Assembly (NCBI RefSeq): GCF_013265555.1
Contig: NZ_CP041345.1
Coordinates: forward strand, 1,844,581 to 1,908,580
Direction: 5' to 3'
Origin: Tenuifilum thalassicum
GTDB lineage: Bacteria > Bacteroidota > Bacteroidia > Bacteroidales > Tenuifilaceae
DNA length: 64,000 nucleotides
Numbering within the stretch: position 1 is the first letter of the stretch; each line of letters starts with the position of its first letter. The position numbers were made by a program, and so were the translations under genes. Below the pieces are notes generated by a model that worked only from the letters and a program-made list of their open reading frames with translations, was not told where the DNA came from and searched no databases. Positions 47,517 to 52,555 of the stretch are shown one piece after another.

Positions 47517-49172
47517 TTACAAATGCTCTAAATAGCTTGTAAAAACCCTAAGCAACTCTTTTGAGCACTCCTCTGCTGGAGTCTTTTCGATATCAACTAC
47601 TATTGCATTTTTAAGGCCCAAACGTTCTACAACTAGCATAAGGTTTTCACGACGAACGGTAAAGATTAGCGGATTTTGAGTGTTCTTTAAATGATGTTCT
47701 ATCAGCTTAGCCCAAACATCGCCCCAAAGTTCAAGCCGTCCAACCTCATCGATTGCTAAAACTGTATCAACCTTAATATTTTTGTATTTTACGGTCATCT
47801 GCTCCACAAGCGCTGTATCAAACTCAAACGATTTGTTTGGCAATCCGCAAGCGGCAATCCGTTTACATAGTAGCATCTCTTCTTTCTCGGGAATGGTTTG
47901 AAGCAAATAACCATTGCGCAATGGCGGTTCTCCTATACCTTTTGCAATAAAGCCCTCTACCCTAACTGATTTATTTGCATTGAGCAGTTCAACAAGATTT
48001 TTTAAATATGATGTTTTCCCCTCTCCCAACCCACCTGTTAGTATAATAATTGGACGTATTCCATTCCAAACATTTTTTCTGATAGCCCCATGAATACCGT
48101 TAATCACACTTTTAGGAGTTTTTCCCACATCGCTAAATAGATTCAAATAAATAGGAAGGGCATTAAAGGCCATTGCCGTGGCATTATAAACCGGCTTAAA
48201 AAAGCCACGGTTAAATAGATTTTTTAAACCAGGGCGGGAAAGTTCAATGCCAATAACAGCAAGTGCAACAACAACAAATACCGCTCTGGTAAAAATGTAT
48301 ACCCCCTGCAAGAAAATTTCAGCATGTTGTGCTGTGAATACAGGAAGTATAAAGGAAAATATTAAAATCGGAACAATAAGAGTTAACTTTTTTAACATTT
48401 TGCGAGGTCTCTCATATAAATACAATACAGTAGCCACATAAGATGTTGCAATAAAAATATCAACCCATAATGAAAATTTCGAAGCCAATGACAGGAATGA
48501 TATAAGAGCAAAGAGGTGGATAGCTAAAGCAAAAATATCTGTCACATTAAAATGTTTCACTTCACTATCAAACATTGTATACTCCAGGCTATTAAGTAAA
48601 TCTGTATTACGGCGTTTGCCCGTATAATATCCTATTAAGGCGCCCACAACACCCAGAACTAGATATGCAAAAAGCAGAAAATATATTGCAATTACTGAAC
48701 TGCTAATATCAAACCTACTAAATATCTCCTTAAAAAAATCTATAATACTCTGACCATAAACCATGTAAAGCCTAACAGCCTTAAAAAGCAAAACAGAGAG
48801 CAAGGCCAAGCCTCCTCCAAGGGCTAAACCAAATATATTAGCACCTAATAAAAACAATCCCACTTCAATTAAAATTCCTTCAAGCAGAATACCAAACATA
48901 GGAGAGAGAATTACTGCACTTGGCGATACTGATTTTAACAAGGCGCAAATTAAGGCAGCACGCAAAAAGAACCCTCGCTTAATATTGTTTGCTGCTATTG
49001 CAGAAACAGTTAAAACCCCTAAAAGAGCAAGCAGTGTTCCCGCAGCCATGGGCAACATTAAATTATGAAGTACCGAGCCAAATGTTATTTCTAACGCTCC
49101 CCATATGCTTCCAGCAACAACTGCTCTTTGCCATATTGGGCTTAAGCTATATGAATTTGATTTTTTATCCAT
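47517..49172 (-). CDS. Multi-pass membrane protein fused to a THEP1-type NTPase (ECF-transporter-like)
   Basis: 551 residues from ATG 49172, which overlaps the stop of the upstream gene (ATGGATAA); the longer frame to 49211 needs TTG. Residues about 10-190 hold five to six TM segments with GSVLHNLMLPMAAGTLLALL and GILLEGILIEVGLFLLGANI, reminiscent of an S-component of ECF transporters. Residues about 210-360 have further TM segments and RAVFVVVALAVIGIELSRPG, reminiscent of a CbiQ/EcfT-type T-component. Residues about 375-551 are a THEP1-type NTPase: Walker A TGGLGEGKTSYLK and Walker B AIDEVGRLELWG. Those last motifs are clear; the transporter parallels are my inference. Substrate unknown. Confidence 0.75.
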   Translation of the reverse strand: MDKKSNSYSLSPIWQRAVVAGSIWGALEITFGSVLHNLMLPMAAGTLLALLGVLTVSAIAANNIKRGFFLRAALICALLKSVSPSAVILSPMFGILLEGILIEVGLFLLGANIFGLALGGGLALLSVLLFKAVRLYMVYGQSIIDFFKEIFSRFDISSSVIAIYFLLFAYLVLGVVGALIGYYTGKRRNTDLLNSLEYTMFDSEVKHFNVTDIFALAIHLFALISFLSLASKFSLWVDIFIATSYVATVLYLYERPRKMLKKLTLIVPILIFSFILPVFTAQHAEIFLQGVYIFTRAVFVVVALAVIGIELSRPGLKNLFNRGFFKPVYNATAMAFNALPIYLNLFSDVGKTPKSVINGIHGAIRKNVWNGIRPIIILTGGLGEGKTSYLKNLVELLNANKSVRVEGFIAKGIGEPPLRNGYLLQTIPEKEEMLLCKRIAACGLPNKSFEFDTALVEQMTVKYKNIKVDTVLAIDEVGRLELWGDVWAKLIEHHLKNTQNPLIFTVRRENLMLVVERLGLKNAIVVDIEKTPAEECSKELLRVFTSYLEHL

Positions 49173-49500
49173 TAACCTTTCTTGGATTTTGTACAATAAT
49201 AAGGTAATCAATCCCTAAAACAAAAAGTAAAATGAACTCTCCGTCCTGAAAACCTAAAACCTTTAAAACAATGGTAAGCATTATTACCATCATCGTATAT
49301 CGTCGATATTTATCGGACTTACTTAGTTTACCCCTGTTCCGTAAATAGTATATCAACCTATAAAATATGAATGGGGAGAATGAAAGGTAAAACATCCATA
49401 CACCAACGCTATACGAAATCAACCTAACAATTCCTGATAGTATTATGATTCCTAAAGTAAAAAGAATTAATTTTCGCTCCGAAAACTTATTTTTAGCCAT
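49165..49500 (-). CDS. Small membrane protein upstream of the THEP1 fusion
   Basis: 111 residues with three or four hydrophobic segments (about residues 10-28, 30-48, 68-86 and 88-104) and a basic middle loop (NRGKLSKSDKYRRYTMMV). It starts MAKNKFSERKLILFTLGIII. Its stop overlaps the ATG of the fusion gene by 8 bases, so the two are translationally coupled and probably make a complex. I do not recognise the family. Confidence 0.65.
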   Translation of the reverse strand: MAKNKFSERKLILFTLGIIILSGIVRLISYSVGVWMFYLSFSPFIFYRLIYYLRNRGKLSKSDKYRRYTMMVIMLTIVLKVLGFQDGEFILLFVLGIDYLIIVQNPRKVNG

Positions 49501-52223: not shown

Positions 52224-52484
52224 TTAGTTGTGATTATGCTCACATGGTTGACTGCATGGCTCTTTCTTTTCGCCTTCGCTGCAACATCCTGCCTTTTTAG
52301 TACTATCACTTTCAGCGCCAACTTTGGTAGAATCGCAGCAAGCATTGTCATCGGCCTTGCTCTTTTCGGCACAACACTCTTCGGTTTTCTCCTTTTTGCT
52401 ATCTTTTGCATTTGTTCCACAAGAGGTAAGCGCCATGCTTCCAACAAATAAAATTGCCGAAACAAATAAAGTAATCTTCTTCAT
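52224..52484 (-). CDS. Small Cys-rich lipoprotein
   Basis: 86 residues from ATG 52484 (the frame to TTG 52535 is rejected). MKKITLFVSAILFVGSMALTSC is a lipoprotein signal with lipobox LTSC. The mature 65 residues hold eight further cysteines, in pairs or as Pro-Cys (ECCAEK, ACCDST, GCCSEG, PCSQPCEHNHN), and a C-terminal HNHN. The pattern suggests a metal-binding or redox-active surface lipoprotein. It lies 71 bases after the TonB receptor gene on the same strand. Overlapping frames on either strand at this locus are not expected to be genes. The function is inferred from composition only. Confidence 0.7.
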   Translation of the reverse strand: MKKITLFVSAILFVGSMALTSCGTNAKDSKKEKTEECCAEKSKADDNACCDSTKVGAESDSTKKAGCCSEGEKKEPCSQPCEHNHN

Positions 52485-52555
52485 AAAAAATCTGTTTTTG
52501 GTTGATATTCTGCAAATAAAGCAATAATTGCTCAAATAGAAAAATTATATGTTCA

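What the first reader, a model, noticed from the sequence alone, without database searches (positions are those of the whole stretch)
47517..49500. Candidate new transporter type: ECF-like membrane domains fused to a THEP1 NTPase, with a coupled small membrane protein
The sequence shows a large multi-TM region followed by a clear THEP1-type NTPase (Walker A TGGLGEGKTSYLK, Walker B AIDEVGRLELWG) in one chain, and an overlapping upstream 111-residue membrane protein. The first membrane half resembles an ECF S-component and the second an EcfT/CbiQ T-component (my inference by eye). ECF transporters normally use ABC ATPases; a THEP1 NTPase in that position would be a different energising or regulatory part. 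If true, one chain would hold substrate-binding, coupling and NTPase parts.
Basis: partly seen in the sequence, partly recalled or inferred. Interest (0 to 1): 0.72.

Follow-up and report, generated by a model that had tools for sequence, protein, structure and literature searches.

The report
Candidate molybdenum-cofactor importer powered by THEP1
The gene looks like the one-chain form of a previously unnamed bacterial uptake system, built like a vitamin transporter but driven by a different kind of energy-using enzyme, and its relatives' genomes suggest that it lets bacteria take up the molybdenum cofactor, or something close to it, instead of making it.

Summary
On the minus strand, 47517-49172 encodes 551 aa: about ten predicted membrane helices in two blocks, then a real THEP1 NTPase. 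The overlapping 111-aa ORF was seen only in close relatives.

The membrane part has no Pfam family. Across Bacteroidota it goes with THEP1 in several layouts: S-T-THEP1 fused, THEP1-S-T fused, S-T beside THEP1, and S, T, TonB receptor and THEP1 as separate genes. Stand-alone S proteins hit Pfam families that I recall as ECF S components (best E 2e-4, below cut-off). T hits CbiQ only marginally. No ABC ATPase. No structure could be obtained.

New lead: 57 of 58 carriers have molybdoenzymes. MobA, DUF364 and other cofactor-handling genes lie beside it in 50 of 133 loci, against 2 of 334 background genes. Of 18 near-complete Bacteroidales with molybdoenzymes but no MoaA/MoaC, 14 carry it and 3 more a cut or S-only form; of 50 lacking both, none.

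Best reading: an ECF-like, THEP1-energised importer of molybdenum cofactor or molybdopterin. Main rival: a molybdate importer. Direction, cargo and energy coupling are inferred. The window genome itself has MoaA, MoaC, MoeA and a ModA-like protein.

The parts
47517..49172 (-). 551-aa fused S-T-THEP1 protein (P0001), stop codon included
   Evidence: 63 of 148 genomes (own included) match
48603..49172 (-). residues 1-190: S-like membrane domain (invariant in A2: W14, W24, E28, G32, H36, N37, K80, S83, P84, S85, P91)
   Evidence: stand-alone homologues; sub-threshold PF09819/PF09605 hits of stand-alone homologues
48078..48575 (-). residues 200-365: T-like membrane domain (conserved Y253, R296, A297, E310, P340)
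   Evidence: separate gene in other lineages; CbiQ, E 0.49, weak
47520..48053 (-). residues 374-551: THEP1 NTPase domain
48012..48035 (-). Walker A (P-loop), residues 380-387
47739..47750 (-). Walker B/DExG motif, residues 475-478
49165..49500 (-). 111-aa three-helix ORF overlapping the start of the fused gene by 8 nt; lineage-specific

Best explanation
The gene encodes the single-chain form of an inner-membrane importer built on ECF lines: a substrate-binding S-like domain, a coupling T-like domain and a P-loop NTPase of the THEP1 family in the place of the ABC ATPases. In its fullest form the system also has a TonB-dependent outer-membrane receptor. The likely cargo is the molybdenum cofactor or its metal-free form molybdopterin (possibly cPMP). 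After uptake it would be used directly, or finished by MobA/MocA-like proteins (nucleotide addition), DUF364, MoeA/MogA (metal insertion) and XdhC (insertion chaperone), for the molybdoenzymes beside which the system is often encoded. Shown by sequence: the module architecture, the usual THEP1 partner, the tie to molybdoenzymes and cofactor-handling genes, and the presence of the system in genomes that have molybdoenzymes but neither MoaA nor MoaC. Inferred: that it transports, in the inward direction, with this cargo, and that THEP1 hydrolysis drives it.
For: (1) One unit: 133 non-redundant S-domain genes; THEP1 fused in 80, in the same-strand run in 16 more, not in the run in 37. Fusion occurs in both orders: S-T-THEP1 (window) and THEP1-S-T, with THEP1 at residues 3-170 and S at 174-373 in L207-L210 (Pfam NTPase_1 over cut-off in L207 and L208, just below in L210). 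S, T, TonB receptor and THEP1 are separate genes in one run in L199, L200, L201, L203, L205. (2) Molybdenum: among 148 genomes (own included) 57 of 58 carriers have a strong molybdoenzyme hit, against 36 of 90 non-carriers (p 8e-15). A cofactor-handling gene (MobA, MocA, MobB, DUF364, XdhC, MoeA or MogA label) lies in the run in 50 of 133 loci against 2 of 334 background genes. The immediate upstream gene is DUF364 in 21 of 80 fused and MobA in 19 of 53 unfused forms. THEP1-MobA fusions occur in L069 and L129. (3) Cofactor rather than metal: of 18 genomes at least 90% complete with a strong molybdoenzyme hit but no MoaA/MoaC, 14 carry the gene, against 0 of 50 lacking both (p 2e-11). Three of the other four have the system in another form: G065 (THEP1-MobA, then the gene cut by the contig end) and G045 and G146 (distant S-only homologue, MobA-like, NarG-type enzyme and THEP1). 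These 17 span 14 families; summed incompleteness of the 54 carriers so defined predicts about 1.8 missing operons. ModA/WtpA-type proteins (PF13531, E up to 1e-20) occur in 2 of the 18 against 52 of 61 Moa+ enzyme-positive genomes. Outside the order MoaC is absent in 25 of 33 carriers, and in 7 of 8 with the S-T-TonB-receptor cassette. (4) TonB receptor in the run: 16 of 133 against 0 of 334. The L203 receptor's nearest solved relatives are BtuB (vitamin B12), the colicin I receptor, YncD and a PQQ transporter. (5) In G046, which lacks MoaA/MoaC, the run is TonB receptor, DUF364, S-T-THEP1, MoeA, MoCF_biosynth (MogA-like). (6) The DUF364 structure paper predicted a pterin/flavin-related role and found gene context with molybdate/tungstate transport (PMC2954201, passages).
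Against: No structure and no experiment; the T-EcfT link by sequence is marginal, and unrelated NCBIfam and Pfam models reach E 0.001-0.002 with the same kind of sequences. In the strict count (14 of 18) the gene is not significantly commoner in Moa- than in Moa+ enzyme-positive genomes (37 of 61; p 0.26). Adding the three other forms gives 17 of 18 and p 0.008, but that comparison is not fair: I did not look for cut or S-only forms in the 24 Moa+ non-carriers. The window genome itself has MoaA, MoaC, MoeA and a ModA-like protein, and no molybdenum-related gene lies next to the gene there. moeA-moaA-moaC is a single operon in G000, so their absences are not independent. Outside the order only MoaC was tested, with no non-carrier control, and some of those 33 matches are weak. 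Exceptions: G108 has an XDH-type enzyme, no Moa and no system found; five Moa- genomes with only weak PF00384 hits (G014, G019, G059, G079, G121) also lack it. Aquifex THEP1 has no known role (PMC1079890, abstract).
Confidence: 0.57

Rival explanations
1. A molybdate or tungstate importer (group-I-ECF-like) energised by THEP1 that replaces ModABC; the Moa- genomes make Moco by an unrecognised route.
For: Moa- carriers mostly lack ModA-type proteins (2 of 16 have one, against 36 of 41 Moa+ enzyme-positive carriers). DUF364, in the run in 22 of 133 loci, was linked to molybdate/tungstate transport in PMC2954201. Unrecognised Moco enzymology is plausible here, since MoaE is not found in 65 of 73 genomes with MoaA or MoaC.
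Against: It would need non-orthologous replacements for MoaA, MoaC and mostly MoeA in many families. Of 41 Moa+ enzyme-positive carriers, 36 also keep a ModA-type protein. The linked TonB receptor tested resembles cofactor receptors. The most frequent immediate upstream gene of the unfused forms is MobA (19 of 53), which acts after molybdopterin is made.
Confidence: 0.24
2. Not a transporter but a membrane-anchored maturation station: THEP1 acts as a MobB-like NTPase working with MobA, and the membrane part anchors cofactor assembly or delivery to exported enzymes.
For: THEP1-MobA fusions (L069, L129). Some THEP1s match Pfam MobB weakly (E 0.0023 and 0.13). Neighbouring genes include TatC and a TAT-signal NapA.
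Against: Does not explain the TonB receptors, the separable S and T modules with S-component hits, or the presence in Moa- genomes. A separate MobB-like protein (E 0.00098, itself below cut-off) sits beside the split form in L057, and a relative of it in L102.
Confidence: 0.1
3. An importer of another micronutrient (for example a queuosine precursor or another metal chelate) whose link to molybdoenzymes is indirect.
For: QueA lies in the run in 9 of 133 loci and within 8 genes in 16; no Rfam match, Moco riboswitch included, in the 6 sources searched.
Against: In one search QueA appears only beside unfused forms or stand-alone THEP1, and MobA also stands in many of those loci. The genome-wide tie to molybdoenzymes is far stronger.
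Confidence: 0.08

Closest known systems
ECF transporters, group I, such as YkoEDC (S YkoE, T YkoC, fused ABC ATPase YkoD)
   Same: Dedicated S, T and NTPase parts in one operon or chain; stand-alone S proteins hit PF09819 and PF09605; scavenging of a scarce nutrient is the proposed role (group I description: PMC5037267, passages)
   Different: NTPase is THEP1 (PF03266), not an ABC ATPase; S, T and NTPase in one chain in two orders; a TonB receptor in some operons; T similarity unproven; strict AxxxA before the TM1 tryptophan anchor in only 12 of 133, AxxxA/G in 114 of 133
THEP1 / NTPCR NTPases (PF03266; Aquifex 1ye8, human 2i3b)
   Same: Same family over the Pfam cut-off, Walker A and DExG motifs kept
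   Different: Here tied to membrane S/T modules and molybdoenzymes; published Aquifex THEP1 has no known role (PMC1079890, abstract)
BtuB-BtuCDF-type vitamin B12 uptake
   Same: TonB receptor plus an inner-membrane importer for a large cofactor; L203 receptor nearest to BtuB in PDB; BtuCDF architecture recalled
   Different: No BtuF- or BtuCD-like gene was seen among the labelled neighbours (not searched for); different NTPase; proposed cargo differs
Dietary Moco uptake by C. elegans
   Same: Acquisition of ready-made Moco from outside
   Different: Animal, route unknown; [quoted passage not shown]

Membership tests
ECF transporter | S component (six-helix substrate binder) | tested here: inconclusive
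   Stand-alone S proteins at E up to 1: 4 of 12 hit PF09819 (best 4e-4) and 4 of 12 PF09605 (best 2e-4), best scores below curated cut-offs where shown; 1 and 3 of 18 at E up to 0.1; no ECF model in NCBIfam and none for the 31 Bacteroidales membrane parts; about five helices by hydropathy; no structure
ECF transporter | T component of the CbiQ/EcfT family | tested here: inconclusive
   CbiQ in 3 of 7 separate T proteins, best E 0.49; not listed for 31 fused/split members or 11 divergent C-terminal parts (first 25 of 34 families shown)
ECF transporter | Pair of ABC-type ATPases | tested here: not met
   NTPase is PF03266; no ABC_tran match up to E 5; THEP1 fused or in the run in 96 of 133 loci
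ECF transporter | NTP-driven uptake of a micronutrient | not testable with these tools
   Inferred from gene context only
THEP1 NTPase (PF03266) | Score above the family cut-off with P-loop and Walker B | tested here: met
   57.3 bits against 23.9; motifs kept. The NCBIfam equivalog NF010248 cut-off of 156 is not reached (59.1)
Moco biosynthesis protein MobB | MobB family match | tested here: not met
   No MobB listed for the window protein; other THEP1s match MobB only at E 0.0023-0.13, below cut-off
Molybdate ABC transporter ModABC/WtpABC | Periplasmic ModA/WtpA-type protein with an ABC permease | tested here: not met
   No ABC part in the chain; strong PF13531 hits are encoded elsewhere or absent (14 of 16 Moa- carriers)

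The most novel reading that the evidence does not exclude
A two-membrane uptake system for ready-made molybdenum cofactor (or molybdopterin): TonB receptor, S-like binder, T-like coupler and a THEP1 NTPase as motor. It would make many Bacteroidota cofactor auxotrophs that respire nitrate, sulfur compounds and other substrates on borrowed Moco. It would give the THEP1 family a physiological role, add a second kind of motor to ECF-like transport, and be the first bacterial Moco importer that my searches could find.
Probability: 0.47. Interest if true: 0.95.

Novelty: new variant of a known kind. Interest (0 to 1): 0.85.

Why it matters
Cells are generally taken to make their own Moco (recalled); the C. 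[quoted passage not shown] A bacterial importer would mean that Moco is shared in communities, would explain molybdoenzymes in genomes without MoaA/MoaC, and could become a tool for delivering Moco. THEP1 NTPases, which include a human member (2i3b), had no known in vivo function in the structure paper (PMC1079890, abstract); a motor role would be a first clue. A non-ABC motor on S/T modules would also widen the concept of ECF transport.

Tried and rejected
Structure prediction of the fused chain with a 49-sequence alignment (A2) was requested 22 times and each time answered 'machine is busy', so no model and no Foldseek search exist. The viral-contig scan for relatives found none. PADLOC found no match. 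Profile searches of the PDB with the membrane part gave nothing for A1 and A3 and for A4 only designed or seemingly unrelated helical proteins, best E 0.001. Pfam on 31 membrane parts gave only single, scattered hits. NCBIfam on 12 S proteins gave only unrelated models, best E 0.0012. No Rfam match in six sources. A first TonB-receptor count seeded from three sequences found 8 of 122 loci against 9 of 702 background genes; the count uses a differently defined background. Some large neighbours that I took for TonB receptors by length proved by sequence to be other proteins. The simple form of the salvage prediction (system more frequent in Moa- than Moa+ enzyme-positive genomes) failed in the first count, 16 of 25 against 41 of 68, and in the strict near-complete count (p 0.26). 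Six literature searches on Moco uptake or ECF and Moco listed no described bacterial Moco importer; I saw listings only, 15 of 462 papers, 15 of 228, 5 of 6, 5 of 5, 1 of 1 and 12 of 52. led to a sentence suggesting that some T11SS proteins may serve molybdopterin uptake (PMC12282271, passage) and to gap-filling model reactions that their authors call unrealistic (PMC3423039, passages). A search for THEP1 with ECF transporter found no paper; one for THEP1 names listed 12 of 112. The library lacks most subscription journals.

Counting notes: presence/absence tables were typed by hand; all 148 include the window's own genome. From the 63 matches five were dropped from the carrier set: G070 and G100 (THEP1 only), G008 and G073 (remnants with stops), G065 (fragment at a contig end, counted separately later). 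Eleven genomes with only weak PF00384 hits were treated as lacking a strong hit unless PF02738 was present. Enzyme-positive Moa- genomes below 90% completeness (G017, G025, G035, G037, G039, G043, G070) are out of the count of 18. The completeness filter was typed only for genomes I inspected; the 50 enzyme-negative Moa- genomes were not filtered. Neighbourhood ORFs come from a simple script, not a gene caller; duplicates were removed by identical S-domain stretches. The 16 loci were read but are not in the 133. Gene labels rest on Pfam for examples of MobA/MocA (both NTP_transf_3; the split between them is by eye), DUF364, XdhC, MoeA, MogA-like, TatC, QueA, NapA/NapD and TonB receptors; the NrfD, PssA, NarK and TsuA-type labels are by eye.

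Full report
What is there. The minus strand of the window carries an ORF at 47517-49172 (551 aa from ATG) and an upstream 111-aa ORF at 49165-49500; they overlap by 8 nt. The long protein has about ten predicted membrane helices in two blocks followed by a THEP1-type NTPase. The membrane part matches no Pfam or NCBIfam family above cut-off and no PDB sequence by profile. The genome (G000, 3.2 Mb, one contig) is in the same family as G024, whose contig C9 has the same length (90,847) as a Perlabentimonas gracilis contig (L075); that species is a Tenuifilaceae.

Relatives. Of 148 genomes searched, own included, 63 had a match, most fused, some split into a membrane protein of about 400 aa and a separate THEP1. 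A scan of public genomes found 398 encoding loci, of which the best 80 were kept, nearly all titled Bacteroidota; a few carry other labels such as Chlorobiota, Elusimicrobia or Bacillota, which may be wrong, since L120 ('Chlorobiota') appears to be the same contig as L064 from G092, a genome of the window's order. In 392 genomes drawn from the phylum 34 matched, the window genome included. There the two membrane halves are often separate neighbouring genes, and in L207-L210 THEP1 stands at residues 3-170, before the S domain, instead of at the C-terminus; a T match follows the S domain in L208 and L209. So S-like, T-like and THEP1 parts have been joined in two orders and also stand apart in one operon. 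Among 133 non-redundant S-domain genes THEP1 is fused in 80, in the same-strand run in 16 and not in the run in 37. Of 16 further loci read afterwards, 7 have THEP1 directly downstream, 1 has it fused and 8 show none nearby.

Is it ECF-like? Stand-alone S proteins gave best E 4e-4 to PF09819 (ABC_cobalt) and 2e-4 to PF09605 (Trep_Strep), in 4 of 12 members each at E up to 1; that these are S-component families is recalled. T proteins gave CbiQ in 3 of 7 with best E 0.49 and it was not listed elsewhere. Unrelated models reached E 0.001-0.002 in the same kind of scan, so these hits are leads, not proof. The ABC ATPases that define ECF transporters are not there. I therefore say that it works like an ECF transporter, not that it is a member. 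A structure would settle S and T; the prediction queue stayed full.

Gene context. Directly upstream, often overlapping, lie DUF364 (21 of 80 fused forms) or MobA (19 of 53 unfused forms; 3 of 80 fused), and elsewhere MocA-like, MobB-like, XdhC, MoeA or MogA-like genes; nearby are molybdoenzymes with iron-sulfur and NrfD-type subunits, or NapA-NapD, or XDH-type enzymes. A cofactor-handling gene is in the run in 50 of 133 loci against 2 of 334 background genes; a TonB receptor in 16 of 133 against 0 of 334. L203 reads NapA, NapD, two iron-sulfur-type subunits, S, T, TonB receptor, THEP1. Of the 8 loci with the S-T-receptor cassette, 7 show a molybdoenzyme in the fetched stretch and L199 does not. 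L155 (G046) reads TonB receptor, DUF364, S-T-THEP1, MoeA, MogA-like. In the window itself there is no such neighbour; the assignment rests on homologues.

Genome distribution. 57 of 58 carriers have a strong molybdoenzyme hit against 36 of 90 non-carriers. Sixteen carriers lack both MoaA and MoaC; all 16 have molybdoenzyme hits, 14 lack MoeA and 14 lack a strong ModA-type hit. With genomes at least 90% complete, 18 have strong molybdoenzyme hits without Moa; 14 carry the fused or S-T gene. G065 has THEP1-MobA followed by the gene cut by the contig end. G045 and G146 have an S-only homologue with MobA-like, NarG-type and THEP1 genes; these S proteins are distant (combined S profile E 1e-6 and 2e-4, ranking directly after the recognised S genes among 2150 ORFs). 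G108 has none that I found. None of 50 genomes lacking both Moa and strong molybdoenzyme hits carries it. Two Moa+ genomes (G008, G073) hold decayed copies. Outside the order MoaC is missing in 25 of 33 carriers, including three single-contig genomes (G271, G279, G448), and in 7 of the 8 with the cassette, G295 being the exception; of the 7 cassette genomes whose molybdoenzyme lies in the same stretch, 6 lack MoaC. No non-carrier control was run there and no other Moco gene was tested.

Interpretation. Genomes that keep molybdoenzymes, and where read often MobA-like genes, but lack MoaA, MoaC, mostly MoeA and strong ModA-type proteins, would need a finished or nearly finished pterin cofactor from outside. 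The system is the common factor, it has the build of a micronutrient importer, and in part of the loci it has an outer-membrane receptor akin to cofactor receptors. Genomes with MoeA but no Moa (G046, G056, G070) would fit uptake of molybdopterin with metal insertion at home, though in G070 only THEP1 was found. The weak points: the strict frequency of the gene is not clearly higher in Moa- than in Moa+ enzyme-positive genomes (14 of 18 against 37 of 61, p 0.26; the 17-of-18 version, p 0.008, was corrected on one side only), the Moa genes lie in one operon, and the window genome has MoaA, MoaC and MoeA. A molybdate importer remains the main rival.

Literature. I read passages of the DUF364 structure paper (PMC2954201), the C. 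elegans Moco paper (PMC9793310), the YkoE paper (PMC5037267), a T11SS paper (PMC12282271) and an E. coli gap-filling paper (PMC3423039), and the abstract of the THEP1 structure paper (PMC1079890). The listings of searches showed no described bacterial Moco importer and no link of THEP1 with ECF transport.

Verdict.

Noticed in passing
G000 and relatives; L167 (G000:C1:2125000-2140000): MoaE (PF02391) was found in only 8 of 73 genomes with MoaA or MoaC (9 of 148 in all). The window genome has a short MoaA (266 aa), MoaC, MoeA and a MOSC-MogA-like protein (by eye) in one operon but no MoaE hit, so molybdopterin synthase is missing, highly diverged or replaced.
   Followed up: partly
L052, L062, L069, L070, L085, L086, L129, L149: QueA (queuosine synthesis; PF02547 shown for L149) repeatedly lies directly upstream of THEP1, MobA or the S-T gene in Bacteroidales (in the run in 9 of 133 loci); reason unknown.
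   Followed up: no
L066 (G040:C201): A second, S-only membrane paralogue (229 aa; S profile E 1.6e-8) lies between THEP1 and XdhC/CoxS/CoxL-type genes in a genome that also has the full S-T gene beside MobA and another molybdoenzyme (L065), hinting at separate S proteins for the two enzyme classes.
   Followed up: partly
L208, L210: The THEP1 part of the reversed fusions also matches DUF2478 (PF10649), over cut-off in L208 and just below in L210; DUF2478 may be a THEP1-like family in other phyla.
   Followed up: no
window 52224-52535, minus strand: Small Cys/His-rich secreted-looking protein with repeated CC motifs (103 aa from TTG), conserved near this locus in the genus (clusters c30 and 32); possibly metal-binding.
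   Followed up: no
G008:C100 and G073:C80: Remnants of the gene with several stop codons in two genomes that have MoaA and MoaC, as if the system were dispensable there.
   Followed up: no
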